Source of the DNA: Desulfomarina profundi
GTDB lineage: Bacteria; Desulfobacterota; Desulfobulbia; Desulfobulbales; Desulfocapsaceae
Reading direction: 5' to 3'
NCBI RefSeq assembly: GCF_019703855.1
Contig: NZ_AP024086.1
Location: 3,120,501-3,184,500 of the forward strand
Length of the DNA stretch: 64,000 nucleotides
This document shows positions 26,690 to 46,969 of this stretch, piece by piece (within the stretch, counting starts at the first letter, position 1; every line of letters begins with the position of its first letter). The notes under the pieces were generated by a model. That model searched no databases. It was not told the origin of the DNA and saw only the letters and a program-made list of their open reading frames with translations. The translations under genes were made by a program, and so were the position numbers.

Positions 26690-26836
26690 AGTTAATCTCT
26701 TGTCAAAGTGTTCAAAAGAGACAGAGAATACATTTCCATCGAACACTCATGGATTCATGATATACTAAAAAAGACAGGTTTATTTCGATCGGGCCGATCT
26801 CTTCAGCGACCCGCAATTACTGTTAGAGGAGTCATT

Positions 26837-28614
26837 TTGAAACCGACAGACATCTCTCACCCCGAGTACTTCCACAAGGTCATTGACTGCCAGTTTGCCT
26901 GCCCGGCCCATACTCCGGTTCCTGAATATATCCGTCTTATCAGCCATGGTAAATATGACGAAGCCTTTGCCATCAACTGGCAGTCCAATGTCTTCCCCGG
27001 CATCCTTGGAAGAATCTGCGATCGTCCCTGTGAACCGGCATGCCGGCGTTCCCGGGTTGAAGAAACTCCAGTTGCCATCTGCCGCCTGAAAAGGGTTGCC
27101 GCTGACCATAAAAATCCAGAAACCAGCTTCACCCCGAAAATTCCTGCAGTAAAAAACGGCAAAAAAATAGGGCTTATCGGAGGTGGTCCGGCTTCTCTGA
27201 CGGTTGCCCGGGATCTCCTGCAGCTCGGCTACAGTGTCGATCTTTATGACGATCAGTCAAAGGCAGGTGGTTTCGTCCGCACCCAAGTCCCCTCCTTCAG
27301 ATTGCCCGAAAAAGTGCTCAACGAGGAAGTGGGTCGCATTCTGGACATGGGGGTCAACACAATTCTCAATACTTACGTGGACAGTCTGCAGGCAATTCTG
27401 GACAAAAATTACGATGCTGTTTTTATCGGAACGGGTGCTCCCAGGGGCAGGGATCTCCCTGATATCCCGGGGAGAAAGGAGGGAGACGAGTCAATCTTTA
27501 TAGGCATTGACTGGCTTGCCGGAGTGCTCTATCGGCATATCACCCGGGTTCCCGAAAAAGTAATAGTCCTGGGGGCGGCAATACAGCCATGGATTGCTGC
27601 AGAACGGCAAGGCGAATGGGTGGCATGGATGTCAAGGTATTTGTCAGAAGCCCGCGTAAAGACATGAAGGCCTCACCCTGGGAAATTGAAGATGCCGAAG
27701 CGGAATCCATTCCCATCATCGACAATCACTCTCCCCTCGAATTTGTTGTCAAAAACGGAAAACTTGCCGGAATGCTTTTTGACAGAGTAAAGGCAACTTA
27801 TGATGACAACGGTAAAAGAAAACTTTTCTCCACGGGAGAACCGCCTGTATTCGTTGAGTGCGACCTTGTCCTCCTGGCCGTGGGTCAACAGAACGCCTTT
27901 CCCTGGATAGAAGACTCAACCGGCATCAAAATGAATGACAGGGGGCTGCCTGTTGTGGATAAAATGACCCACCAGTCTACTGTTCCCCATGTTTTTTTTG
28001 GTGGAGACGCAGCTTTTGGCCCCAGAAATGTCATCACCGCCGTGGCCCACGGTCATGCGGCGGCCATCTCCATCGACCTGTTCTGCCGGGGCAGAGATCT
28101 ATACGACAGACCGGGTCCGAAAACGGCCTTGATTGAACAGAAAATGGACATGCACGACTGGCTATACGACAGCCAGGTATCTGAAGACAGGAGATTTACC
28201 GTGCCAACTGTGGACAGGGTTAAATCATTGCAGGACAGGCTGCTGGAAGTGGAACTGGGCTATGATCGAAAAAAAGGCCACAAGGAAGCCATGCGCTGTC
28301 TGAACTGTGATGTGCAGACCGTTTTCGACCATTCAACCTGTATTGAGTGTGACGGTTGTGTGGATGTATGCCCCGTCTCATGTATCAATTTCACGGAAAA
28401 CGGAGAAGAGGAAAACTTGAGAGGCCGCCTTCTGGCTCCAGCAGACAATCTTGACCAACCACTTTATGTCTCGAAGGAACTCCCCACGGGCAGGGTAATG
28501 GTCAAGGATGAAAACGTCTGCCTGCACTGTGGACTCTGTGCCGAAAGATGTCCCACCGCTTCATGGGAAATGAAAAAATACACCTATACTTCACCTATGG
28601 CCGGTCAGAAATGA
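26837..28614 (+). CDS. GltD-like FAD/NAD(P) oxidoreductase with Fe-S domains at both ends, apparent frameshift at 27571-27575
   Basis: About 592 residues are rebuilt by restoring G5 at 27571-27575 to G6, giving VIVLGGGNTAMDCCRTARRM, the second Rossmann motif. The N-terminus has a GltD-type Fe-S domain (CQFACPAHTPVPEY ... CDRPCEPACRR). FAD binding is at GLIGGGPASLTVARDL. The C-terminus carries two [4Fe-4S] ferredoxin motifs (CIECDGCVDVCPVSC and CLHCGLCAERCP). A TTG start at 26837 is chosen because AGAGGAG lies just upstream. The stop overlaps the next ATG (ATGA). It probably passes electrons between NAD(P)H and the 2-oxoacid oxidoreductase, replacing a separate ferredoxin subunit. Confidence 0.85.
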
Positions 28615-31799: not shown

Positions 31800-32321
31800 T
31801 TATTTCTTGCCCTGCTGCCTGCGCAGACCAACAAGACCGGCCAGGCCGGCACCGAACAGCAGCATGGTGGCCGGTTCCGGGACGGGATTCTGGGTAGGAA
31901 CATTAATATAAGCGTAACGATCTTGATAATCAGGTACGTAAACGGGAGTATCAGGAGAAGAATACACTATCGATCCGGTATCAATGGTGAAACTTTGAAT
32001 ATAAGAAGAATTAATTCCCCAATTATCATCGGCATGCACCCACCACGTTTGTCCACCTGTCATTAAAAACTGAGAGGTAATATCCACTGAACCGAAATGT
32101 CCTTCTGGGTCCGTGCTACCTCCCCCAGTATGATCCCACGCCAACTGAACTATCCAGTCCGGGGAAGAAATATCTCCTACGCCAATAAAAATATCGTAAT
32201 CATCATAAAATGGGTTTCCTCCACCCATTTCAAATGAAGCTATAACATCCGCACTCGCAACCCCGACCATACCCGCCAAAAACAACCCTGTAACCAAACC
32301 AACCAACAATTTTTTCTTCAT
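31800..32321 (-). CDS. PEP-CTERM sorted secreted protein
   Basis: The 173-residue protein has a Sec signal peptide (MKKKLLVGLVTGLFLAGMVGVASA) and a C-terminal PEP-CTERM signal: the motif VPEPATM, a hydrophobic stretch and a basic end (GLRRQQGKK). The exosortase system recognises this signal and exports the protein to the cell surface or matrix. The middle is Gly/Asp/Trp-rich, beta-type, and of no recognised family. The start at 32321 follows AAAGGGGGATGGA. A sigma-54 promoter lies 80-100 bases upstream. No exosortase or PrsK/PrsR genes are in the window. Confidence 0.88.
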   Translation of the reverse strand: MKKKLLVGLVTGLFLAGMVGVASADVIASFEMGGGNPFYDDYDIFIGVGDISSPDWIVQLAWDHTGGGSTDPEGHFGSVDITSQFLMTGGQTWWVHADDNWGINSSYIQSFTIDTGSIVYSSPDTPVYVPDYQDRYAYINVPTQNPVPEPATMLLFGAGLAGLVGLRRQQGKK

Positions 32322-32401
32322 TCCATCCCCCTTTTCTTGATCTTGTTTCGATCTCTTTTTGATTTTCTCTACACAACATACATTTTCATTCTCCCTTAAT
32401 A

Positions 32402-32419
32402 TGCAAACTATGGTCCAAT
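32402..32419 (-). promoter_or_regulatory. Sigma-54 promoter of the PEP-CTERM gene
   Basis: The minus strand reads TTGGACCATAGTTTGCAT, with GG and GC exactly ten bases apart and a TTTGCA -12 box. The predicted start is about 70 bases before the gene. Sigma-54 control of PEP-CTERM genes through PrsK/PrsR is known in other bacteria, which supports the call. Confidence 0.65.
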
Positions 32420-32633
32420 TGCGAAATAAAAATGCAAAAAAAATGACCATGTCCATATCATCATGAATTCACAAGATATTTTTCATCATAAGCCAATCGC
32501 TCGACCTCTCGTGTCTCCATGATGACCGGCTCTGTGTTTCCGAAAACCTGAACCAACTGCGGTTAACCCCAATTTTCGATACCCCCTTAAGTGGGCATCT
32601 GTATGCGAAAAACGGTATTAAAAAGGGATGCGG

Positions 32634-33489: not shown

Positions 33490-35808
33490 TTATTTTAAAC
33501 TTTTTCCCAACGCCTTCCGGATAACTTTAGCCAGGGTATATTTATCAACAGGTTTCGTGACATATTCACAGATGCCGAACGATCTGACCGTCATCTCATT
33601 AATTGCTTCACTGAAACCTGTACACAAAATAACCGGTAAGCCAGGTTGCAGATCGAGCAGTTTCCCGGCCAGATCGATTCCCGTCATTTCCGGCATAGTC
33701 ATATCAGTAATAACTAGATCGAACATCTCAGGATTGCTCTTAAAGACCTCCCACGCTTCAACACTGCTGGAAAAAAAAGATACTGAGTAACCAAGGCTCT
33801 TCAGCATACGCTGCATCAATTGGCCGAGAACCTGTTCATCATCAACAATCAACAACCGCTCATTCCCCTTTGGAATATCCTCAGATACCAGATGTACAGC
33901 TTGAAAACACTCTTCGTCAATTATGGGAAGATATATATGGAAAGTGGTTCCCTGGTCCAGCTCACTCGAAACAGTGATTTCCCCTTTATGCTGTTTAATA
34001 ATTCCATGAACCACAGCCAGGCCCAAACCAGTTCCCTCTCCTTTTTTTTTGGTAGTGAAAAACGGATCAAAGACCTTTGACAGAGTCACTTCATCCATTC
34101 CACATCCAGTATCACTGACTTCAAGATCCAGATACACTCCTGCTTTTAATTGCGGACAATCAACAATATCATTGTCTCCGGTAACTTCAATTTCAGATAG
34201 TGCAACTTGCAATTTTCCTGTATGATGACCGATTGCATGCTTGGCGTTAGTACAGAGGTTCATTAATACCTGATGCAGTTGGGTGGAATCCACTAAAATC
34301 GGTCGGCAATCTGTTGCAACGTTTTCCTGGAGCTCGATAGTTGCAGGCAAAGTCGATCGCAACAACTTGAGAACTTCTTTAATGATTAAATGAGCCTTAA
34401 ACGGTTTAAAATCACCCTCTTCCTGACGACTGAACGTCAAAATCTGTTTTACAAGATCCGTTGCCCTGTAGCCCGACTGGATAACCCGATCCAGATCTTT
34501 ACCCACAGGATCATCTGCAGATAATTGAGCTCTTGCCATTTCACTATATCCGAGAATGGCCGAAAGAATATTATTAAAATCATGAGCAATACCACCGGCA
34601 AGAGTACCAATTGCCTCCATCTTCACTGCCTGCCTCAGCTGCTTTTCAAGTGATTTTTCGCGACTCACATCACGCTTTACCGCTACAAAATTAGTAATCC
34701 TGCCCTCATTATCCTTAACAGGTGTAAAAGTAGCTTCTTCTTCATAGGAAGAACCGTCTTTTTTTACGTTAATAAGAGAACCACTCCATGTTTGCCCTCC
34801 ATGAAGTGCACTACACATTTTTTCAAAGCTTTTCGTATTTTGATCACCATGGCTTAAAAAACAGCAATTTTGCCCAATAGCTTCCTCACAGGTAAAACCA
34901 GTTGTTTTTTCAAACGCAGGATTGACATACTGGATATTTCCTTGACTATCACTGATCATTATAATCTCAGAGACCTGATCAATAGCCGCTGCCAGCCGCA
35001 ACCGTCCAATTTCTGATTTTTTCAAATCACTTATATCTTTGGCTACATGAATAATATACTCGAGCTTGCTCTGGTCATCTAAAATTGGTGCAGCTGAAAC
35101 TAGAAACGTTTTGTCTAGTTTTTCATGGTATATTTCTCCACTGCAGGGAAAAAAATGTTTTTTTGTATCGATAAGCGGGCAATCCCTACAAACAGTATCA
35201 TCATTGCGAAACAGTGAAAAACAATGGTGGCCGACAATCTCATTCCAGGACTTCCCCAAAGTGCTTGAAGCTGCCTGATTTGCCCGGATTATGGTAAGAT
35301 TTCTATCTTGAATAGTCACAATATCCGGCATTGCATCAAAGGTTCGTTCCCATTCTTTTTTGCTTTTTATCAGTTCCTGTTTCATCTTTTTACGCTCAGT
35401 TATATCCTGGGCTATAAACGTTTCTCCTGCAGACCAATTCTCTTGATCAAAGGGAGTAAAACTCAGATGAATATCGATAACAGCACCATCTTTCCGTTTG
35501 AATTGCGTGTCAACGGCACCTGCGCCTCTCGCTTTTAGCTGCTGATCTTTTTCTAAACTGACCCGGTCAAACTCTTCTTTATCTGGAAAGAGCATACAGG
35601 CGTTTTTCCCTTCCAGTTCGTCTCTTGTATATCCGGTAATTCCGGTTACCTTCTCATTAGTCCAATGAATAACACCATCCACAACAAAACCTATACCCAC
35701 AGGTGCCGACAATGCTATTGATTGAAAAAAATCTTTATTTTTCTTCCTGGGCAGACAATCTGTTAACTGTTTTCCCGCAAGTTTGGAAACTGTTTGCTTT
35801 CTATCCAT
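33490..35808 (-). CDS. Soluble hybrid histidine kinase (three PAS domains, kinase, receiver)
   Basis: The 772-residue protein has no membrane segment. Three PAS domains lie at about 27-140, 150-265 and 275-385, the second with several cysteines ([15 protein letters not shown]). The kinase core has H-box [20 protein letters not shown] and ATP boxes DTGCGMDEV and GTGLGLAVV. The receiver at about 650-770 has acidic DDE and the phospho-acceptor in [15 protein letters not shown] marks the kinase class that often works with an attached receiver. The ATG at 35808 follows GGTGG. It is the last gene of the long minus-strand signalling block. Confidence 0.92.
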
Positions 35809-35936: not shown

Positions 35937-36335
35937 CTACCCTAACAGACTGATAGCATTATCTCCAAAAAGTGTAAGAAAACTCTCATCTGCCAGATTG
36001 CAGCGAAATCCCTGACAGGAAAGAGGTCGATAATGGTAAATTTTACAAAAATACAGATCGTTCCGTTGCTCCAGAAAAACACAACCCTTATCATCGGGAT
36101 GAATCATATAAACCCTGCCTTTTTCCTTGTTTTCTTCTATGAGTTGCGCCAGCGGTTTCTCCCGAAGTTCTTTTAAAGTAGCATCAACACCAACATGTCC
36201 TCCCATTTTTTTAATATATGCCACCTCATCTCCTTGAAGCAGGACTTTTTTATATTTTTTACAGCAGGTACCACATTGTCGACAATCCTGCAAAATGGTT
36301 TTGAGCACCACGTCATCAAGCTCTATCTTTCCCAT
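35937..36335 (-). CDS. YkgJ-family cysteine-cluster protein
   Basis: The 132-residue protein carries the CRQCGTCC motif near its start, plus Cys at GCVFLEQ, CKIYHYRPLSC and FRC, the pattern of the YkgJ (CxxCxxCC) family, thought to bind zinc or an Fe-S cluster. The ATG at 36335 (MGKIELDDV) is chosen because the upstream in-frame part is unlike the family. It lies 70 bases after the deacetylase-like gene on the same strand. The molecular role is unknown in the family. Confidence 0.8.
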   Translation of the reverse strand: MGKIELDDVVLKTILQDCRQCGTCCKKYKKVLLQGDEVAYIKKMGGHVGVDATLKELREKPLAQLIEENKEKGRVYMIHPDDKGCVFLEQRNDLYFCKIYHYRPLSCQGFRCNLADESFLTLFGDNAISLLG

Positions 36336-36405: not shown

Positions 36406-37431
36406 TTAAATTGTCCAGTGACGATGGAGAGGATGACCATCAAGAATCATTTCCGCCCGCGGGACAGAAAGAATCCCAGGCCTGATAATTTCACTTCTTG
36501 TCATGGCATCAATAGTTGCAAGTACCGAATCTTTCAAAGAAACAGGATTATACCCACCCTCTAGAACATAGAGGAGACGATTTTCGCAATTTTCAGCAGC
36601 ATGACGTCGCAGGATATGGGTAATCAAACCATACCACTCCGTACTCAAAAACGTACCACTGATATTATCGTCAACGTGGGCATCAAAACCGGCTGAAACC
36701 AATATAAATTGAGGAAGATACTGTTCCGCCACCCCTTGAAGCAACTGTCCGAGCAGGCAAGTATATTCCTGATCACCAAATTGAGGATGAATCGGGATAT
36801 TTATGGTATATCCCACCCCTTCCTCACTCCCTGTTTCCGTTGAAGGACCAGTGAAAGGGAATATACCCCTCTGGTGAATTGAGCAGAGCAGAACTTCATT
36901 TGTGTCATAGAATATTTCCTGAGTACCGTTGGCGTGGTGAATATCAAAATCGAGAATAAGAATACGTTTAAGACCATACTGCCTGCGGAGATATTCTGCT
37001 GTCAGGGCAACATTATTAAAAATACAGAAGCCCATCCCTCTTCCTCCCATAGCATGGTGGCCAGGAGGACGAACCAGAGCGAAACCGTAATCAATATTTC
37101 CCGCCATGATTTGATCAGCAAGACTGAAACACCCTCCCGCGGCTAGTTGAGCGGTAGGTACGGATTCCTCCATGAGATAGGTATCACGGTCATAGGTAAA
37201 AGGATCGTTTTTTACAGCATGTTCCCGTAATTGTTCCATATAAAACGGTGAATGCAGCATACCTATTTCACCACTGGTTGCTTCCCGTGGTTGAATATGA
37301 ACAATGGATGTATTGGTATTGTGCTGCAATTGCAGATAAAGACTGCGAACCCGGTCAGGATTTTCAGCAGAGGAGGCGGAAATCGAATGGTGTAAATATC
37401 TGTTGTCAAAAACCAGGCCAAGCTTATTCAT
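36406..37431 (-). CDS. Histone-deacetylase/acetoin-utilisation family deacetylase
   Basis: The 341-residue protein has the arginase-deacetylase fold. Zinc and catalytic motifs are RPPGHHAM, GFCIFNNVAL, LDFDIHHANGTQEIFY and the later VSAGFDAHVDD, with a final LEGGYN. Bacterial members remove acetyl groups from lysines, polyamines or other amides. The gene starts eight bases inside the upstream acetyltransferase gene, so an acetylation-deacetylation pair is plausible. Its substrate is not shown. Confidence 0.92.
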   Translation of the reverse strand: MNKLGLVFDNRYLHHSISASSAENPDRVRSLYLQLQHNTNTSIVHIQPREATSGEIGMLHSPFYMEQLREHAVKNDPFTYDRDTYLMEESVPTAQLAAGGCFSLADQIMAGNIDYGFALVRPPGHHAMGGRGMGFCIFNNVALTAEYLRRQYGLKRILILDFDIHHANGTQEIFYDTNEVLLCSIHQRGIFPFTGPSTETGSEEGVGYTINIPIHPQFGDQEYTCLLGQLLQGVAEQYLPQFILVSAGFDAHVDDNISGTFLSTEWYGLITHILRRHAAENCENRLLYVLEGGYNPVSLKDSVLATIDAMTRSEIIRPGILSVPRAEMILDGHPLHRHWTI

Positions 37432-37993
37432 AGTGATATTGGTAGATGGGCTGCGAATGATACTGGTCTGAAGTCAATCTGAAGAGATGGCCCGTCCTTT
37501 TTTCCTGCTGATCATCATAAACCAGGGATTCGACAAGCTCGAATCCCAGTTTTTGAAGACAGCGCTGCTGGGCTATATTGTCTATATCAGTATACATTTC
37601 AATAACTTCCACCGAAAGTCGATCAAAAAGATGCATAATAAGGAATTTTTGTATTTCGGTACCATACCCCTTACCACGCTCTTCAGGTAGAGCTACTTTT
37701 AAAGCCATAGTGATGGAATTTTTCCCGGCCGCAGGCTGGCGCCAATAATGAACTGTTCCAATTGGCAATTCTCTGTCTTTTATAGAAACTAAAAACATTT
37801 TTTCCAACTCACCCCAAAAACCACCAGAGTTAATCTGCGTCCGCATTTGTTCAATATCATAGTTTTCAGGGTTCAAATACGACCCGCAGGCAATTTTTGA
37901 CCGACTCCAGGTAACTATAGTCTGAAGATCATCTTCCCTGATTTTTGACAAAATCAGCCTGCGGGTAAAAAGTCTGTCTCCAAATAAACTCAT
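37424..37993 (-). CDS. GNAT-family N-acetyltransferase (RimJ/RimL-like)
   Basis: The 189-residue protein begins with the RimJ-type TRRLILSKIREDDLQTI. The acetyl-CoA loop is LPEERGKGYGTEIQKFLI, and NIAQQRCLQKLGFELVE is the usual C-terminal part. It would acetylate an amino group of a protein or small molecule. It lies 10 bases after the chemoreceptor gene and overlaps the deacetylase gene by eight bases. Confidence 0.88.
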   Translation of the reverse strand: MSLFGDRLFTRRLILSKIREDDLQTIVTWSRSKIACGSYLNPENYDIEQMRTQINSGGFWGELEKMFLVSIKDRELPIGTVHYWRQPAAGKNSITMALKVALPEERGKGYGTEIQKFLIMHLFDRLSVEVIEMYTDIDNIAQQRCLQKLGFELVESLVYDDQQEKRTGHLFRLTSDQYHSQPIYQYHYE

Positions 37994-38003
37994 ATCATCT
38001 TAT

Positions 38004-41000
38004 CTACATTGAGCTGACTGCTATATTCAATTCCTTGCTGGAGGAAGCAAGCTTATTCAGCGCCTCAATTGTTCCATCAATGGACAAGTTAACCATTTTG
38101 GTAGATTCTTGATTTTCCTGGGAGGAATTCACCACGCTGCTGAGTTGCTCCTTAACATTTTGCCCATTATCACTGAGAATATCTGCTTTTTTATCCAGCT
38201 CTTCAACAGAATTTGAAATGGTAACAATACCGGTTGAGATTTTTTCCATAGCCTCAAGAGCAGTCTCAATCACCTCGCTGCCATCCCCAAGCATTTTCAT
38301 TCCATCCTTCATTGCCACGATGGTTTCTTTGGACTCATGTTCAACTTTTTTGACAATATTGGCAATATCCACTGCCGATTTTGATGAATTTTCTGCCAAT
38401 TTACGAATCTCATCGGCAACCACTGCAAATCCGCGCCCTGCATCACCAGCCCGGGCTGCTTCAATAGCCGCATTGAATGCCAAAAGGTTAGTCTGGGAGG
38501 CTATTTCCTTTATGATATCAACAAATCCACCTATTTTTTCGAGTTGATTCACTAGATTACCCACCATCTTATTGGATCCTTCCATTGATGTATTAATTGC
38601 CACCATCTTCTTCTCCGCATCCGCACCGGCCTTTTTACCCTGTTCCGCATCTTTTGCAACACCGGCAGCCATTTCACTGGATTTGGTTGTAAGGTCTACC
38701 ATTTCTTTTGTAAATCCAAGCATATTGTCCAAAGTAATAGAGGAATCGTCAAGCAACCTGACTTCTTTGTCAATCAGTTTACTCATGGCTTCCATGTTGT
38801 TGGTTGCCTCATCCATTTTCGCAAGAGAATCAGAAACAAGAGTCTCCACCTCAGAAGATGCCGTATTAATCAGTTGCGCCACCTTTGCCTCCGAGGTCAC
38901 ATCAACCATATATTCCAGACCTCCTTTAATATTACCTTTTGCATCCTTTATGGAAACACTGGTAACATTAACCGGAATATCCCTGCCACCAATATGAGCA
39001 GTAGTCTGTTCCGTGATTGTCGTGTTGCCACTGATTGCCCGTTGAACCAAACAATGTTCAGTATTGCAGATATCAGTACCAAAAAGATCAGAACACCTTT
39101 TCCCCATGGCCTCTTCCACGGTCATTCCCGCAATAGCGGCGCCGGCAGGATTGATATAAGTAATTTTATAGTCCAAATTTACCGAATGGATGGGATTGGG
39201 AATAACGTTGAGGTTTTCAATTTTTTCATTGGCTTCCTGCCTCTGTTTTGCTTCTTCGGTAATATCAAGAATAAATTCCAGACCTCCCTTAATATTACCC
39301 TTGGCATCTCTGATAGGAGCACCAGTATATTTAATGGGTACGATTACACCATCCTGCGGACGGGCAATAGTTTCTTCATTGACGATTTGATCTTCACGCA
39401 TGGCACGCCCAACTGCACATTTTTCTGTCTGACAATGTGCAGTTTTGAAAAGCTCGTAGCATTTTTTACCTATAGCTTCATCAGGAGTAAGCCCGACCAG
39501 ACCTGCCCCGGCTGGATTCATGAAAGTTACATTAAATCCAGTATCAACCGACATAATGGGAGTTGGAATAGCGTTCAGATTTTCAATTTTTTCATCAGCA
39601 TCCTGTTTCTGTTTTGCCTCTTCTGTAATATCCAGGATATATTCCAGAGCACCTTTTATATTTCCCTTGGCATCCTTAATGGGTGAACCGGTATATTTTA
39701 TCGGTATTATCACGCCTTCTGCCGGTCGGGCAATAGTATTGTCAGTAACAACCGCATCTGTCTTCATGGCCCTGGCACAGGCACATTTTTCCGTCTTACA
39801 ATGGGGTGTCTTAAAAAGATCAAAACACTTTTTACCCACCACCTCATCCGGCGTCATGCCGACAACTGCTGCTCCTGCCGGATTCATAAACGTCACATTG
39901 TAGTCAATGTCAATCGACATGATAGGAGTCGGGATTGTATTGAGGTTGTTTATCTTCTCTTCTGCTGCCTGCTTCTGCTGGGCCTCTTCCGTAACATCAA
40001 GAATATATTCCAGAGCACCTTTTATATTTCCCTTGGCATCCTTAATGGGTGAACCGGTATATTTTATCGGTATTATCACGCCTTCTGCCGGTCGGGCAAT
40101 AGTATTGTCAGTAACAACCGCATCCGTCTTCATGGCCCTGGCACAGGCACATTTTTCCGTCTTACAATGGGGTGTCTTAAAAAGATCAAAACACTTTTTA
40201 CCCACCACCTCATCCGGCGTCATGCCGACAACTGCTGCTCCTGCCGGATTCATAAACGTCACATTGTAGTCAATGTCAATCGACATGATAGGGGTCGGGA
40301 TTGTATTGAGGTTGTTTATCTTCTCTTCTGCTGCCTGCTTCTGCTGGGCCTCTTCCGTAACATCGAGAATATATTCAAGAGCTCCTTTTATATTTCCTTT
40401 GGCATCTTTTATTGGTGCACCGGTATATTTTATAGGAATAATGATCCCGTCAGCAGGCCTGGCAATTGTCTGATCCGAAATAACTGAATCAGTTTTCATG
40501 GCCCTGTTACAGGCACACTTTTCTGTTTTACAATGGGGTGTTTTAAAAAGATCGTAACATTTTGTACCTATAACCTCATCCGGATTTTTCCCCACCACTG
40601 CAGCTCCGGCAGGATTCATGAAAGTGACAGTAAATTTATCATCAATTTCCATGATAGGTGTAGGAATTACATTCAGATCTGTTTCCATCTGCTGCAACCT
40701 GGAATGCAGGACTTTTTCCTTTGTGATATCGTTTAAGCTCACCAAAGTTCCGCTGTTTTCCGGTAATGGATTTGCCCGGGAAGTAAACCAGCTTACGTCA
40801 CTGCCATTATTTGCATGCAACACCTCTGTTTCCACACCTTTCTTCAAACGTTTAGCTCTATTGGCCGGACAATTTTTCGTGCCACAAAGTTGTGAGGGAC
40901 ACGTCTCTTCACACGTAAGCTTACCGATAACCTGAGATTTTTTAAGATGGAATTCTTCTAAAAAAGCATCATTAGTCCAGGTAATAATCATATCATCATT

Positions 41001-41078
41001 CACGATATAACTCGGATCCATTAATAGAGACAAATAAGACTCACCAGCTAGAATGTGTTGTGCTGCAGCAGTGACCAT
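38004..41078 (-). CDS. Cytoplasmic methyl-accepting chemotaxis protein with six tandem PAS domains
   Basis: The 1024-residue chemoreceptor has no membrane segment. Six PAS domains occupy about residues 1-735, and the last five are repeats of a 122-residue unit. Units 2-4 share the Cys motif [20 protein letters not shown]; units 5 and 6 keep variants of it ([35 protein letters not shown]). The signalling hairpin is intact ([21 protein letters not shown]). The start at 41078 follows AAGGAGGT, inside which lies the stop of the CheW gene. The conserved cysteines suggest a redox, metal or Fe-S sensor, which is inference. It should signal through the adjacent triple-CheW protein. Confidence 0.93.
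39643..40375. repeat. 366-bp tandem duplication inside the chemoreceptor gene
   Basis: The segment beginning ATATTCCAGAGCACC at about 39643 is repeated 366 bases later with only a few single-base differences (for example GCATCTGTC against GCATCCGTC). It encodes PAS units 3 and 4, which are virtually identical in protein. The frame is kept. The other PAS units are clearly diverged, so this duplication is recent. Confidence 0.9.
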
Positions 41079-41082
41079 AGAA

Positions 41083-42618
41083 CTACCTCCTTTTTACTGT
41101 GTTGGATAACAGATTTTTTTCTTCTTCAATATTTTGATAGTCTGTCGACGAGTGAGATGCGGTAGCAGGATCATGCCGCAAATGGTTGTTGATCAGATTG
41201 TGGATATTGAGTATCAGAAGATGTTCCTTTATCTTCTTGTCACCAATAAACTCAATGAGACGATCCAAGGTGTCTTTTTTGGGCTGCAATTGAGGATTGA
41301 GTGATGGTGTTGCATGAAACTGTTCCTGTTTATAGATGGTTATAATTGCATCTACCTGCAACCCGATGACACGCTTACCATCACGACATATAATCAATTT
41401 ACTGTTGTTTTCATTCCCACTCTGATCCGGATAACCGTAAAATTTGCGTAGATTAATCACGGGGATTACCTGACCGCGTAAATTAAAAACCGAGGCATCA
41501 AAACCATTGGCTCCCGGAACAGGTAATAAAGTATCCTGCTCTATGATTTCCTGGACATCTTTAAGTTCAATTGCAAAATATTTCCCGATGGAAAAAATAA
41601 GATAGCAATTTTCTGTTATCAAATGCCTGGCTTCTACCACTAGAGCTTCCTCCTGCTCGTCACCGTCACTCTTCATTCTTGCCATTGATTCCAGTAATTC
41701 CATCTGGGAGGCCACGAGGTTTTCAACATCAAGAAGCATGATATTGCGCCCTGGAACGGGTTCGTATATACCAGAAATCGACCGATCTCCATCAGATGGC
41801 ATTGAAAGAATTTTTTCATTGGTTACCGTGAGTATTTCCTGAATTTCATCTATGATCATGCCAAAAATTAAGGCGCTTGTGGCTATTACAAGAATACGAC
41901 TTGATTCTGTAAGCCCCTTTTCAGAATCATCACCATTAAGAAGAGCGGCAGCATTCATTACTGGAATCGTGCGACCACGTAATTGCAAAGCACCTTCAAG
42001 AGAACCGGTTTTAAACATATCATCAATATCGGTGATAAAAGTCAGTTCCCTGGCATTCTCTACGGGAACACCATATTCTCTTCCTCCAGAAGAAAAAATA
42101 GTATATCTGGAATACGTCCACTTTTCTGTTGTCTGCAGCGAAGACCCGGAGGTAATAATCGAATCTGTCAGCAAATTTGAATTCTGGAACAGTCTGTTCA
42201 GATCAAGAACTTCCAGAGTACGGTGTTGATTGTGCAAAGTGATCAGATCAGAGATGATGTAATTTTCAGATTGTAATGCCGGCTGAATCGGAAGAATATG
42301 GGCCTCATCTACTCTAATGACTTCCTTAATATCATCAAAAAGCAGGCCGAATTTTTGATTTGCGAGTATAACCACCGCAATCCTGGCATCTTTATCATAT
42401 TCCCCAGCCCCTTCGAGACCCATTCGCTTTTTCAGATTGAGTACAGGAATAACGGCATCACGAAGATGCATAATACCTTCGAGAAAAGAGACACTTGCGG
42501 GCAGAGGTTGTATTCTTTCCGTCAAAGGTGTTGCCTCTGTTACACTTTCAGCAGCAATGGCTATTTCCAACCCCAGCTCCCGGTCAAGAAGAAATGATGC
42601 AAAAAGTTGTTCCGCCAT
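41083..42618 (-). CDS. Triple CheW-domain chemotaxis coupling protein
   Basis: The 511-residue protein is three CheW folds in a row, about residues 5-150, 170-315 and 335-490. Each shows the typical strand pattern ending in a variant of RGxVIPVxNL ([42 protein letters not shown]). CheW domains link receptors to CheA. The three-domain form may array receptors or bind several partners. The ATG at 42618 follows GGAGGAG. It lies four bases before the chemoreceptor gene and is surely co-transcribed. No receiver domain is present, so it is not CheV. Confidence 0.9.
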
Positions 42619-42846
42619 AATCAACACTCCTCCCTTACTGTACCTAACCTTTTGTATTTCGAGTTACCCATGAAACTCAACAAAATTAATACAGTTTTTC
42701 AATGGGATAATGCTCATTCAGATTCTTTTTGAATCTGCAAAAGTGATTTTTAAAATACGCCCGATAAAACAGTCACATCTCCAGCTTTAAAAGTGTCAGG
42801 CTGAGTTTCAAACGTATTTAATTTGTCTTTATAATCTTCTTGTTCA

Positions 42847-43245
42847 TTAATATGTTACATTGCACATCTTGTTTACAATGGATGCCAGTTCAGCAGTATC
42901 CTGATCGATAGCCGTTATATATCGTGGCTTGAGCAAATGGCATTTCGCATTGTCAACCAAGCTGTCATCACCCATTATCAGGATTACCCTAAACGTCTCA
43001 AATATTTCCCTGATTTCAATAAGCTCTTTAAAGTCAAGCCAGTTCCCCACATATACAATCACCAGATCACCACTCCGCAAGTGCAGGCTTTCTCTGGTTT
43101 TCAACCTCGACCCCCCAGGTAAAATGATCAATTTCTGCAGACCAATGATTGGTCTGAATTTTGACAGACATCTTTTAGCACAGGTCATATAATGACAATG
43201 GCCATCACATTTAGAATCTTTCACTGGATAAAAGTAGATGTTCAT
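42847..43245 (-). CDS. Small protein with N-terminal Cys/His cluster and receiver-like core
   Basis: The 132-residue product starts with a metal-site-like cluster (KCDGHCHYMTCAKRC). The rest has alternating strands and helices (LVIVYVGNWLDFKELIEIRE, FRVILIMGDDSLVDNAKC) that look like a receiver or Rossmann-type fold without the usual phosphorylation pocket. It lies on the same strand between the sigma-54 regulator and the CheW gene. The ribosome site is weak. No family is recognised; a regulatory role in the block is a guess from context. Confidence 0.55.
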   Translation of the reverse strand: MNIYFYPVKDSKCDGHCHYMTCAKRCLSKFRPIIGLQKLIILPGGSRLKTRESLHLRSGDLVIVYVGNWLDFKELIEIREIFETFRVILIMGDDSLVDNAKCHLLKPRYITAIDQDTAELASIVNKMCNVTY

Positions 43246-43586
43246 ACGCACTCGGCAATATACCCAAAAGATGTACGGTTAAAATACTTTCCACTTTCAA
43301 GTTAAAACGTGTAAAGCACTATCCATGCCAAGAAATATTTTTTCTGCACAAACCGTTAACCTGCTGTTAAAAAAAAAGATTCGCTCAATACATAATCGCC
43401 CCTCTCCTGATGTACAATTTTATCTGTCCACAAAAGGGTACACCTGCAAATTTTGTGGACAGATAAAGTGTACAGTCAACCTGCAGTCCTCACACGATAA
43501 TTAATATCTGTGATTTTGTTGTATAAAAAAGGAGGGGATAAAGCGGAAGAAATAGCTGAAATCGAGCGTATCCTAAATCGGATTTC
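43246..43586. other. 341-bp intergenic region with long inverted repeat
   Basis: It holds the inverted repeat at 43412-43473 and, at its end, CGGATTTCTCAT (43579-43590), which matches the end of the IS1380 element at 45259. A weak 32-codon reading at about 43521-43616 is not supported. It looks like a scar of mobile DNA. Confidence 0.45.
43412..43473. repeat. Long near-perfect inverted repeat (about 23-bp arms)
   Basis: The left arm (43412-43435) and right arm (43451-43473) both read GTACA-N-TTTATCTGTCCACAAAA towards the centre, with one extra base in the left arm and a 15-base loop. There is no T tail, so it is not a standard terminator. It may be two abutted IS ends or a binding site. Confidence 0.6.
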
Positions 43587-44962
43587 TCATGAAAATTTTA
43601 CATCATATTTTTGAATAAGCTGATAAAGGCGGGTTCTGGACAAACCGGAGATTCTGCATGCTTTTGAAATATTATTTTCAGATGCCAACTTAAGCTTTTG
43701 AACATAGCTTTTTTCGCACATTTCCTTGTGCTTTCGCCAGGAAGACAGCTCCCGAGATTTTTCTTCAGACAGTTGCTGGGATTCAAATCCCGCGCGAGCC
43801 TGTCGAACACGAATTTTCTCTGGTAAATGAATAGCAAAACAGGTGGAGCCAAGAAAAGAAGCTGTGAACACCTGCTCCATGGTTTGGTACAGTTCCCGAA
43901 CATTTCCAGGCCAATCATACCCCAGCAGAGACTCAAAAAATTCCGGTGCGATTCCTTTAGTATCAAGACCATAACGTTCACAGAGTATATTAATAAAATG
44001 TGTGGAAAGCAGTTTGATATCTTCAAGTCTCTCCTTCAGGGGGGAAGCTTAATAGTCACAGCTTGTAATCTGAAGAGAAGATCATCCCTGAACTCATCCC
44101 TGGAAACGCATTCTTCTAAATTTCGATTTGTTGCAGCAACCAACCGAAAATCACTGTACTGCTGACTGGAAGATCCTACCGGTCGATACTCATGTTCCTG
44201 TAAAAGACGCAAAAATTTCTTCTGGGTATTTAAGGGTAATTCCCCGACTTCATCTAGAAAAAGAGTCCCGCCATCGGCCTGTTTGACCAGTCCGTTCTGT
44301 TCTCTGTCCGCTCCGGTAAAAGCCCCTTTTACATGACCAAAAAGTGTGCTCTCAATTAGATTCTCAGGTAATGCGGCACAATCGACTACTACAAAATTTT
44401 TATGACAGCGGGAACTGTTTTCATGAATGGCTTTTGCAAAAAGCTCTTTGCCGGTGCCTGTTGCCCCGGCAACAAGGACCGAAACATCACTGGCAGCAGC
44501 CTGCGCTACCTGATCAAGACATTTATTTATTGCCGGGCTCGAACCTATGATATTTTTTCGTTTCAGGGCAACCGGGATTTTATTTACCCTCATTTTTTCC
44601 TGCCTGTACTGTAGCGCCCTTGTCAGCTGCAGGTTCAGCTCTCTGATCACATGCGGTTTTTCAATATACCCCCAGGCACCACTCAGAACTGCCTTTTCAG
44701 CTCCATCCGCCTCCCCCTGCCCGGTTATGATAATAACCTCCGGGCATGACGACGTGTTTTTAAAATGACCAAGAGACTCCAGACCATTTCCATCGGGCAA
44801 CTGCACATCGAGCAGGACCACATCATAAAAGCACTCTTTACTTTTCTCCAAACCTTCAGCCAGCGTATTGACCATTTCGGCTTTATGCCCTAAACGCATC
44901 ATTTGATCAACAAGCATCTCGGAAAGCACCAAATCATCATCAATAATCAATATGTCAGCCAA
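43587..44962 (-). CDS. Sigma-54-dependent response regulator (NtrC family), apparent frameshift at 44039-44044
   Basis: Restoring G6 at 44039-44044 to G7 joins the two frames at IKLPPLKERLEDIKLL, giving about 458 residues. The receiver has DDD and the phospho-acceptor in VLLDVQLPDGNG. The AAA+ domain has GATGTGKELF, GAFTGAD and LDEVGEL. The C-terminal Fis-type helix-turn-helix is NISKACRISGLSRTRLYQLI. Translation seems to begin at a TTG (44962) after a G-rich ribosome site. A perfect sigma-70 promoter lies upstream at 45027-45056. The stop codon lies in a sequence that matches an IS1380 end. No partner kinase is adjacent; the hybrid kinase at 33490 is one candidate. Confidence 0.88.
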
Positions 44963-45258: not shown

Positions 45259-46969
45259 CCCGGATTTCTCATTAAAACAAAGAAAATAGGCTATAAATGT
45301 TGTAATATTATCGTAATTCTAAGACGATAACCCAAACAACAAAAATAGCCTATGAAAACAGAATGTACTCAAATTAAAAGCAGATTTCAAGCGCTGGGTA
45401 AACGAGAAATCAGAGCAGATTTCGATTGGGGTTCAATCAGTTCCGATGGAGGGGCTCTGCTTCTTCGCGAGGTTGAAAACCGTACAGCAATTGTCAGGCG
45501 ATTTGCAGAGTGTTTTACAGATTTCCGTGATCCAAGGCGAATAGAACATGATGTTGTTTCGCTGGTATCTCAACGGGTGTTTGGTCTTGCTCTGGGGTAT
45601 GAGGATCTTAATGATCATGACGAGCTGTCAAAAGATCAAATGCTGGCGGTAGCTGTTGGCAAAAGTGATCCCACAGGCAATGATCGTAAGTCATTAAAAG
45701 ATAAAGGGAAACCACTCGCCGGAAAGAGTACTCTCAATCGTCTTGAGCTATCAGCTCAGGGTGATCTTTCAGGTAGCATGTACAAGAAGATAGGGCTTGA
45801 TGAAGAGAAAGTAGACAATCTGTTGGTTGATATTTTTCTCGAGTCAACGCCAATAGCGCCACCGCAGATCATCCTTGATGTCGATGCAACTGACGATCCA
45901 TTGCACGGCAACCAGGAGGGGCGTTTTTTCCATGGTTACTACAAGGCATACTGCTATTTACCTCTCTACATTTTCTGTGGTGAGCACTTGCTCTGTGCCC
46001 GACTGCGCACGGCAGATAATGATGCAGCTTCCAGGACAGTGGAAGAGTTGGCACCGATTGTTGAACGTATTCGTAACAGGTGGCCGAATACCCAAATAGT
46101 TGTTCGAGGTGATAGTGGTTTTTGCCGTGAAGAACTGATGAGCTGGTGCGAAGACAATGATGTCGATTTCGTTCTTGGTGTCGCAAAAAAAACAGCCGAT
46201 TGAAGGCCGAGATAGAAGAAGAAATGGCCTTGGTCAAAGCTCTGTTCCAATGCAGTGGTAATTCATCGCGTGTCTTCAAGGATTTTTGTTGCAGGACCTT
46301 GAATACCTGGCGCTGGTATCGGAGAGTTATTGGTAAAGCTGAGTATTTGCCAAAAGGCGAAAATCCTCGGTTTATTGTTACATCGTTGCCAGAGGCACAG
46401 TACGACGCGAAGGTTTTATATGAGCAGATATACTGTGCTCTGGGAGACATGGAGAATCGAATCAAAGAGCAGCAGTTAGTGCTCTTTTCCGCGCGAACCA
46501 GTACCAGTAAAATGAGGAGCAATCAAATACGGCTCTATTTCTCATCAATCGCATACATTCTGTTGCAAACACTGCGACAGCTCTGTCTGACAGGGACAGA
46601 AATGGCAAGGGCTCAATGCGATACTATCAGACTGAAAATATTAAAAATTGGGGCCAAAGTCAAAATCACGGTACGGAAAGTATGGATAAGCCTGGCAACT
46701 GGCTATCCGTATAAAGAACTTTGGGATACAATCCTCTACCGATTAGCTGGAATACCCGTGCAAGGCTAAAAAACCGGCTCCGTGAAAAACCATGGCGGAG
46801 CTGTGTCTAGAAACACAGGTTTTGGCTTATTTTGCCGAATGAGTAAGGTTTTTGAGCTAGAAATTATCAATATCAGATAGCCGGAAGGTATTTTCAGAGG
46901 GTGACACTGGTCCAAAGCTGGCCTGATCTTAAAATGTTGGTCAGCTTTGGATTTGATGAGAAATCCGGG
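45259..46969 (+). mobile_element. IS1380-family insertion sequence, complete (1711 bp)
   Basis: Perfect 14-bp terminal inverted repeats CCCGGATTTCTCAT (45259-45272) and ATGAGAAATCCGGG (46956-46969) bound the element. It is flanked by the 4-bp target duplication CTAA (45255-45258 and 46970-46973), the size known for IS1380. It carries one transposase gene in two frames. It is inserted into an older IS5-like relic. Confidence 0.95.
45352..46769 (+). CDS. IS1380-family transposase, two frames joined at an A8 run
   Basis: The first frame (45352-46203, 283 aa) begins MKTECTQIKSRFQALGKREI and includes the DDE-type catalytic acids in LDVDATDDPLHGNQEG and VVRGDSGFCREEL. It ends just after AKKTAD. 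The second frame (to 46769) continues as SRLKAEIEEEMALVKALF up to the family's C-terminus. A -1 shift, or one lost A from A9, at A8 (46185-46192) fuses them into a normal-length enzyme. Programmed slippage and sequencing error are both possible. Confidence 0.9.

What the first reader, a model, noticed from the sequence alone, without database searches (positions are those of the whole stretch)
38004..41078. Cytoplasmic chemoreceptor with six PAS domains, five of them repeats carrying a paired-cysteine motif
A receptor with no membrane segment stacks repeats of one 122-residue PAS unit. Most keep LFKT-HC-TEKCA--RAM, so up to a dozen or more cysteines are displayed in order. That could be a multi-site metal, Fe-S, haem or thiol redox sensor giving graded responses. 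The number of units appears to be changing.
Basis: partly seen in the sequence, partly recalled or inferred. Interest (0 to 1): 0.6.

Follow-up and report, generated by a model that had tools for sequence, protein, structure and literature searches.

The report
Cysteine-rich chemoreceptor with changeable sensor repeats
A sulfur-cycle bacterium carries an internal chemotaxis receptor built from a string of near-identical cysteine-bearing sensor units whose number differs between relatives, and it usually travels with its own coupling protein, acetyl-adding enzyme and acetyl-removing enzyme, which hints at an unusual way of tuning a chemoreceptor.

Summary
Window 38004-41078(-) encodes a 1024-aa cytoplasmic chemoreceptor: six PAS domains, five of them 122-residue repeats, then an MCP hairpin. 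In 162 N-free repeats from 33 orthologous genes, cysteines C1-C3 are kept in 162 of 162 and C4 in 119; only four other cysteines occur in those repeats. Repeat number does change: 3-7 per gene, at least 13 changes on a tree of 30 genes. Middle repeats turn over; the last is fixed. No cofactor can be shown. LOV, FAD, haem and NreB signatures are not met; a metal/Fe-S or reactive-thiol site is inferred.

Beyond the finding, the receptor lies in a conserved operon with a three-domain CheW protein, a GNAT acetyltransferase, an HDAC-type deacetylase with intact catalytic residues and, often, a CxxCxxCC protein. In 93 family genomes receptor, CheW3 and GNAT come or go together, with three exceptions that contig ends or a deletion explain. 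These receptors have nearly lost the methylation-site consensus (none in 28 of 33; at least one in 26 of 28 comparison receptors).

Best reading: a cysteine-centred redox/metal chemoreceptor module. Boldest reading not excluded: adaptation by reversible acetylation instead of methylation. New variant of a known kind; chemistry untested.

The parts
38004..41078 (-). Cytoplasmic chemoreceptor, 1024 aa: N-terminal Cys-PAS, five 122-aa Cys-PAS repeats, MCP signalling hairpin
40704..41039 (-). N-terminal, non-repeat PAS (about aa 14-125) with motif [15 protein letters not shown] (C56, C60, C65, C70)
   Evidence: Pfam; motif in 31 of 33 genes; all four Cys invariant in the 15 full-length orthologues
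40308..40673 (-). Repeat 1 (aa 136-257), C174 C183 C188 C190
39942..40307 (-). Repeat 2 (aa 258-379), C296 C305 C310 C312
   Evidence: 94.3% DNA identity to repeat 3
39576..39941 (-). Repeat 3 (aa 380-501), C418 C427 C432 C434; the unit modelled by AlphaFold2 (130 residues at 39579-39968)
39210..39575 (-). Repeat 4 (aa 502-623), C540 C549 C554, no fourth Cys
38847..39209 (-). Repeat 5, the last and most divergent (from aa 624), C662 C671 C676
   Evidence: 28-33% protein identity to repeats 1-4
38004..38846 (-). MCP signalling hairpin, arms of about 138 and 145 residues; no methylation-site consensus match, five Glx-Glx pairs outside the consensus
41083..42627 (-). CheW3: coupling protein with three CheW domains, 4 bp upstream of the receptor gene
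   Evidence: CheW, 3 stretches, E 6.6e-64; conserved next to the receptor; spacing
37424..37993 (-). GNAT acetyltransferase (Acetyltransf_3), 10 bp downstream of the receptor gene
   Evidence: R-x-x-G-x-G kept in 31 of 31 orthologues examined
36406..37431 (-). HDAC-family deacetylase, overlapping the GNAT gene by 8 bp
   Evidence: Pfam Hist_deacetyl E 1.8e-88; HDAC6/HDAH-like; six catalytic positions kept in 31 of 31 orthologues examined
35937..36335 (-). Small CxxCxxCC (YkgJ-like) protein, putative zinc- or iron-chelating domain; first ATG at 36335 (an earlier TTG frame start is listed)
   Evidence: PF03692 E 3.7e-8; beside the operon in 25 of 32 loci; start
42847..43251 (-). 134-aa protein of unknown family 219 bp upstream of CheW3, also near CheW3 in part of the relatives; membership in the operon unsure
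   Evidence: (no Pfam match up to E 0.1)

Best explanation
This is a chemosensory module encoded in one operon. The receptor is a soluble, presumably dimeric rod. Each PAS presents a C-x8-C-x4-C(-x-C) site around helices E and F, where other PAS domains hold their cofactor. The most likely chemistry is a metal or Fe-S centre, possibly loaded with help of the CxxCxxCC neighbour, or else redox-/sulfide-reactive thiols. The state of these sites reports the redox/sulfur state of the cytoplasm. Several repeats in series add sites or gain; repeats are added and lost by recombination in the middle of the array, while the N-terminal PAS and the last repeat, which joins the hairpin, stay fixed. The signal passes through helical linkers to the MCP hairpin and, through the dedicated CheW3, to the one CheA found in the genome (1.43 Mb). 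The co-encoded acetyltransferase and deacetylase set the activity of one of these proteins. Shown: architecture, invariant cysteines, repeat turnover, conserved operon, co-occurrence, intact deacetylase residues, near-loss of methylation consensus. Inferred: cofactor or thiol chemistry, ligand, coupling to CheA, target of the acetylation pair.
For: C1-C3 in 162 of 162 repeats, C4 in 119; only 4 stray cysteines; 21 of the protein's 22 cysteines invariant in 15 full-length five-repeat orthologues. Repeat model pLDDT 92, PAS fold, with C1 at the start of helix E, C2 in the E-F loop, C3 just before and C4 inside helix F. C1 aligns with the LOV adduct cysteine in solved matches shown. In 77 named loci, chosen by similarity, all 235 domain hits of 100 bits or more have the three cysteines; of the 47 weaker ungapped hits 35 have them, and 19 of 301 hits were dropped for gaps. 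Operon in 32 non-window loci: CheW3 31, GNAT 31, HDAC 31 (misses L100 and L088, both at contig ends), CxxCxxCC 25. Family of 93 genomes: receptor 30, GNAT 30, CheW3 32. G033 keeps only CheW3's front fused to HDAC's back half, receptor and GNAT gone. CheA, CheR and one CheB of the genome sit together near 1.42 Mb, far from the window.
Against: No cofactor, ligand, motility phenotype or protein contact is shown. No coordinates were available, so cysteine distances were not measured. The full-length model failed (mean pLDDT 48, pTM 0.25), so the arrangement of the array is unknown. Twelve last repeats lack both C4 and the His, so not every repeat need hold the same site. In L145 a 57%-identical receptor is followed directly by the CxxCxxCC gene with no GNAT or HDAC found in the 6.7-kb locus (its CheW3 side is cut by the contig end), so the acetylation pair is not always there. 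The CxxCxxCC gene is missing from four loci that have 1.6 kb or more beyond HDAC (L066, L077, L100, L101).
Confidence: 0.55

Rival explanations
1. Reactive-thiol sensor without a metal: the three to four cysteines of each unit form disulfides or persulfides with sulfide, polysulfide or oxidants, and the number of modified units sets the output.
For: Three invariant thiols per unit. Hosts look like sulfur-cycle bacteria: named loci include Desulfocapsa, Desulfopila, Desulfofustis and Desulfobulbus, and Desulfocapsa sulfexigens is described as a sulfur disproportionator (abstract of PMC3739170 in the listing). Cysteine sensors of sulfane sulfur exist (CstR; YrkD expected to act likewise; passages of PMC9918477).
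Against: No Cys pair is the classic CxxC (spacings). Three rather than two invariant cysteines plus a metal-chelating-type neighbour fit a metal or cluster at least as well. No distances measured.
Confidence: 0.3
2. The cysteines hold a structural zinc (or similar) and sense nothing; the repeats are a spacer that places the hairpin in a cytoplasmic array, so number can drift.
For: Repeat number changes about as freely as a shuffled label on the tree (13 changes, shuffled mean 12.4). Middle repeats are homogenised within genes (nearest repeat in the same gene for 47 of 65).
Against: A ruler would be expected to keep its length. The same motif occurs in receptors with one or two such PAS domains in distant MAGs. 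Twelve non-cysteine columns of the unit are invariant too in 66 units, more than a spacer needs.
Confidence: 0.2
3. LOV-like flavin photoreceptor or FAD/haem PAS repeats.
For: The best solved matches by sequence are LOV-type domains (6rhg E 2.8e-6), with C1 on the LOV cysteine; the best structural rows include LOV (9vf7_C Z 14.9) and the FAD-PAS of NifL (2gj3_A Z 14.2).
Against: The residues around C1 are GKKCYDLF, not the GRNCRFLQ-like stretch of the aligned LOV structures; the FAD tryptophan of helix F (described in PMC10468136, passages) is absent from the repeat consensus; no His is invariant. PAS folds match each other generally, so fold rows do not tell the cofactor.
Confidence: 0.05
4. 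GNAT and HDAC act on polyamines or another small molecule and merely share the operon; the receptor may sense that metabolism.
For: The only solved match of the GNAT is a spermidine N1-acetyltransferase, weak (3tth, E 1.7e-4). HDAC10 polyamine deacetylases are among the HDAC matches.
Against: The HDAC is nearest to HDAC6 domains and bacterial HDAH; the position that I take for the HDAC10 gatekeeper glutamate (recalled, placed by the HDAC6 alignment) is Ile or Met in 31 of 31 orthologues.
Confidence: 0.25

Closest known systems
PAS-containing energy-taxis chemoreceptors (Aer, AerC)
   Same: PAS sensor feeding an MCP hairpin; redox sensing is the proposed role; AerC and Aer are FAD-PAS chemoreceptors (passages of PMC10468136)
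   Different: Here the window receptor has six PAS domains in series (repeat number 3-7 in relatives) with invariant cysteines, no FAD tryptophan, and an own CheW3/GNAT/HDAC operon
NreB [4Fe-4S] PAS of Staphylococcus carnosus
   Same: Cysteines of a cytoplasmic PAS as sensor site (named in PMC10468136, passages and reference list)
   Different: NreB's cysteine pattern (CX2C...CX2C, recalled) is not the pattern here; NreB is a kinase
LOV domains
   Same: Fold and the position of C1
   Different: LOV signature around the cysteine absent; two more invariant cysteines
AcuA/AcuC acetyltransferase-deacetylase pair of Bacillus subtilis
   Same: A GNAT and a Zn deacetylase of the HDAC family encoded in one operon and acting on one protein, AcsA (passages of PMC8556138)
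   Different: Here the pair sits behind a chemoreceptor and CheW3; the HDAC is nearest to class-II HDAC6, AcuC is put in class I in that review; the target is unknown
CheY lysine acetylation in E. coli
   Same: Acetylation as a control of chemotaxis (passages of PMC8556138)
   Different: There the response regulator and general enzymes; here an operon-encoded pair beside a receptor
Geobacter GSU0582/GSU0935 haem chemoreceptors
   Same: PAS-fold sensor domains of chemoreceptors (abstract of PMC3460858 in the listing)
   Different: Those domains are periplasmic with c-type haem; here cytoplasmic and without CxxCH

Membership tests
Chemoreceptor (MCP signalling domain family) | MCPsignal domain above the curated cut-off and conserved hairpin tip | tested here: met
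   PF00015 128.5 bits, cut-off 34.6; tip [17 protein letters not shown] in the sequence
Methyl-accepting chemoreceptor | Methylation-site consensus in the methylation helices (usual, not in every chemoreceptor; consensus recalled) | tested here: not met
   No match in the window receptor; 28 of 33 operon receptors have none, 26 of 28 comparison receptors have at least one. Five Glx-Glx pairs lie outside the consensus context, one at 977-978. Filed as chemoreceptor, not as a shown methyl-accepting protein
PAS domain | PAS profile match and PAS fold | tested here: met
   6 stretches; pLDDT 92
LOV photoreceptor | Adduct cysteine within a GxNCRFLQ-type motif | tested here: not met
   Cysteine position shared, surrounding motif GKKCYDLF
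FAD-PAS (Aer, AerC, NifL, MmoS) | Conserved tryptophan in helix F (PMC10468136) | tested here: not met
   No Trp in the consensus of 66 units
Haem PAS (clusters 3 and 119 of PMC10468136) | Invariant haem-binding histidine | tested here: not met
   Most conserved His of the motif region 149 of 162 and in the E-F loop
c-type haem chemoreceptors (GSU0582/GSU0935) | CxxCH (recalled) | tested here: not met
   No two of the 22 cysteines are three residues apart
NreB-type Fe-S PAS | CX2C...CX2C cysteine pattern (recalled) | tested here: not met
   Pattern here C-x8-C-x4-C-x-C and C-x3-C-x4-C-x4-C
Fe-S or metal-binding PAS in general | Bound cluster or metal | not testable with these tools
   needs purified protein
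Acu-type acetyltransferase/deacetylase pair | Adjacent GNAT and HDAC-family genes with catalytic residues | tested here: met
Acu-type acetyltransferase/deacetylase pair | Reversible acetylation of one common target | not testable with these tools
   no acetylome or enzyme data

The most novel reading that the evidence does not exclude
A chemoreceptor family that has given up CheR/CheB methylation and adapts by reversible acetylation: the operon's GNAT and HDAC write and erase acetyl groups on the receptor (or its CheW3), replacing the methyl-glutamate memory, while a cysteine-PAS array of evolvable length senses intracellular redox or sulfur state.
Probability: 0.25. Interest if true: 0.88.

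Novelty: new variant of a known kind. Interest (0 to 1): 0.64.

Why it matters
Chemoreceptor adaptation by methylation is one of the best known feedback loops in biology; a receptor group that keeps its own acetyltransferase and deacetylase and has nearly no methylation-site consensus could be a natural replacement of that loop, and this can be tested directly. Natural receptors with 3 to 7 copies of one sensor unit are a ready-made series for asking how the number of sensors sets gain and range. The cysteine-PAS subfamily also occurs in receptors of MAGs labelled as several bacterial phyla and as the methanogen Methanolobus, and no close solved structure was found (best E 2.8e-6).

Tried and rejected
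Full-length AlphaFold2 model from 15 orthologues: mean pLDDT 48, pTM 0.25, not used. LOV, FAD, haem, CxxCH and NreB-type readings: set aside on signature residues (Membership tests). Repeat array as assembly artefact: set aside, because orthologues in other assemblies show it with differing sequences, and among genomes of one or two contigs the counts still differ (G000, G011, G209, G186 five; G078 four; G028 six). Near-identical repeats may be collapsed in MAGs, so single counts may be low, and several named MAG contigs end inside the array (e.g. L118, L120, L124). L099 (N gap inside the array), L086 (N runs) and L079 (in-frame stop in the hairpin) were left out of the tree (30 of 33 genes). 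The projected CheW3-to-receptor spacings are unreliable for genes whose repeat number differs from the window's. The literature searches listed no paper, by title and abstract start, on this receptor, on cysteine-PAS repeat arrays, or on a chemoreceptor operon with an acetyltransferase/deacetylase pair; that covers only the top rows of an open-licence library. Of papers I saw search listings and the passages returned for PMC9918477, PMC10468136, PMC8556138, PMC7666581 and PMC10542144; none was read whole.

The methylation comparison is not phylogenetically independent: the operon receptors are one family (32 orthologues plus L151; in G036 the GNAT/HDAC side is cut off by a contig end). The consensus was recalled, and 5 of 33 have one match. 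Thirteen other receptors of the genome, those whose tip matched a pattern, were compared (12 with a match) and twelve (10 with a match; slightly different tip pattern and narrower regions); receptors whose tip did not match were not compared. In the nearest receptor without GNAT/HDAC (L145) one match lies in the helix regions and two in the wider stretch, so that single contrast is weak. Glx-Glx pairs without regard to context are fewer in operon receptors but not absent (mean 3.2 against 8.3).
Full report
WHAT IS THERE. The ORF at 38004-41078 on the minus strand encodes 1024 residues with six PAS stretches and one MCP signalling domain in Pfam and no membrane segment indicated (maximum 19-residue hydropathy 0.99). 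Five repeats start at residues 136, 258, 380, 502 and 624, exactly 122 apart. Repeats 2 and 3 are 94.3% identical in DNA, with a 362-bp stretch recurring 366 bp on with two mismatches, a recent tandem duplication or conversion; repeat 5 shares only 28-33% protein identity with the others. The 22 cysteines fall in six clusters, one per PAS. The search of the own genome found no second receptor of this kind (next best E 4.5e-18, hairpin only). Among six distinct PAS domains of other own-genome proteins that the repeat profile aligned (loci L002-L020 and the window only), one, in L019, has three aligned cysteines with a different spacing; five do not.

ORTHOLOGUES. At E <= 1e-150 the receptor is found in 30 of 93 family genomes; in the order 76 of 242 genomes match at E <= 1e-40, but many of those matches are other PAS proteins of about 800 aa at about 27% identity. 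From 32 fetched loci plus the window I took 33 genes. The genes hold 164 recognised repeats, 162 without N: C1, C2, C3 are cysteine in 162 of 162, C4 in 119, and the residue before C2 is His in 149. Only 4 further cysteines occur in those repeats. Repeats were recognised by other residues, not by the cysteines. In an alignment of 15 full-length five-repeat orthologues (15 of the 18 five-repeat genes), 21 of the window's 22 cysteines are invariant. The N-terminal PAS has C-x3-C-x4-C-x4-C in 31 of 33 genes.

REPEAT TURNOVER. Genes hold 3 (3 genes, one of them with an assembly gap), 4 (4), 5 (18), 6 (6) or 7 (2) repeats. On a tree of 30 hairpin sequences the five classes need at least 13 changes, the least possible being 4; shuffled labels need 12.4 on average. 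Supported sister pairs differ by one: G070/G028 and G024/G036; less well supported G010/G103 and G020/G093. The nearest repeat by DNA lies in the same gene for 47 of 65 middle repeats, 7 of 32 first, 10 of 32 next-to-last and 1 of 33 last repeats; for 30 of 33 last repeats the nearest is another last repeat. So the ends are held by position and the middle is replaced by recombination.

STRUCTURE AND COFACTOR. A repeat modelled from 66 units has mean pLDDT 92 and the PAS fold. C1 (model residue 48) starts helix E, C2 (57) lies in the E-F loop, C3 (62) precedes and C4 (64) lies in helix F. The best solved matches by sequence are LOV-type domains (E 2.8e-6), in which C1 aligns with the cysteine of GRNC; by structure LOV and other PAS domains (9vf7_C Z 14.9, rmsd 2.4, 127 aligned; 2gj3_A Z 14.2, rmsd 2.8, 115 aligned). 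LOV, FAD, haem, CxxCH and NreB signatures are not met (Membership tests). No coordinates could be measured, so whether the cysteines meet in space is unknown. In 77 named loci all 235 domain hits of 100 bits or more have the three cysteines, as do 35 of 47 weaker ungapped hits; 19 of 301 hits were dropped for gaps. Of 34 of these loci looked at in one frame, 33 show the motif and 22 an MCP tip, among them MAGs labelled Methanolobus, Pirellulales, Marinilabiliales and Bacillota. These loci were the best 80 of 376 matches, chosen by similarity, and one of the four search peptides contained C1, so this is a description, not a census.

THE OPERON. Four bp upstream lies a protein with three CheW domains; 10 bp downstream a GNAT acetyltransferase, then, overlapping by 8 bp, an HDAC-family deacetylase, then a small CxxCxxCC protein. 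In the 32 other loci CheW3, GNAT and HDAC are each found in 31 and the CxxCxxCC protein in 25, all on the receptor's strand. In the family of 93 genomes GNAT orthologues occur in 30 and CheW3 in 32. Receptor and GNAT sets differ only by G036 (contig ends before GNAT) and G058 (receptor split over contig ends, below the threshold). CheW3 covers both and adds G033, where CheW3's front is fused in frame to HDAC's second half and receptor and GNAT are gone. HDAC orthologues of 56% or more identity accompany the module (31 full-length places in 30 genomes), while 35-44% paralogues are widespread. G061 has two whole copies of the module. Of the distant loci L155-L178, 22 of 22 show no GNAT or HDAC beside the cysteine-PAS gene, some with short flanks; L170 and L173 in that range are operon-type loci cut by a contig end. 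L151, a MAG labelled Myxococcota, has CheW3, GNAT and HDAC; L145 has a 57% identical receptor followed directly by the CxxCxxCC gene and no GNAT or HDAC in 6.7 kb, its CheW3 side being cut off.

ACETYLATION IN PLACE OF METHYLATION? Six HDAC catalytic positions are kept in 31 of 31 orthologues and GNAT's R-x-x-G-x-G in 31 of 31 (residue roles recalled, alignment to HDAC6). Nearest solved HDACs are HDAC6 domains and bacterial HDAH. The window receptor has no match to the methylation-site consensus (recalled). In the helix regions 28 of 33 operon receptors (32 of the 33 genes plus L151) have none, against 2 of 28 comparison receptors (12 other receptors of this genome, 15 distant cysteine-PAS receptors and L145); means 0.15 and 4.6. 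The genome does have CheR, CheB and CheA near 1.42 Mb. The AcuA/AcuC pair is a precedent for a GNAT and an HDAC serving one target (passages of PMC8556138). All this is circumstantial: the orthologues are not independent, five Glx-Glx pairs remain in the window receptor's helix regions, one at 977-978, and L145 shows that the pair can be missing.

VERDICT. Real, conserved and evolving; a new variant of a known kind (multi-PAS cytoplasmic chemoreceptor). The cysteines are under strong constraint; their chemistry is open. The operon with an acetylation pair and the near-absence of methylation-site consensus is the most surprising part.

Noticed in passing
window 43590-44962: Sigma-54 response regulator whose homologous parts lie in two different frames meeting near 44040; the relative in L084 has one 484-aa frame. 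Pseudogene or assembly error.
   Followed up: partly
window 45352-46769: Two overlapping frames that look like one transposase split by a frame break, next to the regulator above; read by eye only.
   Followed up: no
window 33490-35808: PAS histidine kinase with another cysteine-bearing PAS ([19 protein letters not shown]), a different cysteine spacing from the repeats.
   Followed up: partly
L180 (G033:C31:12500-20500): Deletion remnant: front of CheW3 fused in frame to the back half of HDAC, receptor and GNAT missing.
   Followed up: yes
L066 and L067 (genome G061): Two copies of the module in one genome, both receptors with five repeats.
   Followed up: partly
L145: A MAG contig labelled Candidatus Gastranaerophilales carries a receptor 57% identical to the window's, followed by the CxxCxxCC gene and no GNAT/HDAC; misbinning or transfer.
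   Followed up: partly
L079 (G091): Orthologue with an in-frame stop in the signalling hairpin; decay or sequence error.
   Followed up: no
window 26708-28614: Two overlapping frames (26708-27667 and 27589-28614) that read by eye as one oxidoreductase interrupted by a frame break; with the regulator it suggests indel errors or decay in this assembly.
   Followed up: no
window 31800-32456: Protein with a PEP-CTERM sorting signal (E 4e-8).
   Followed up: no
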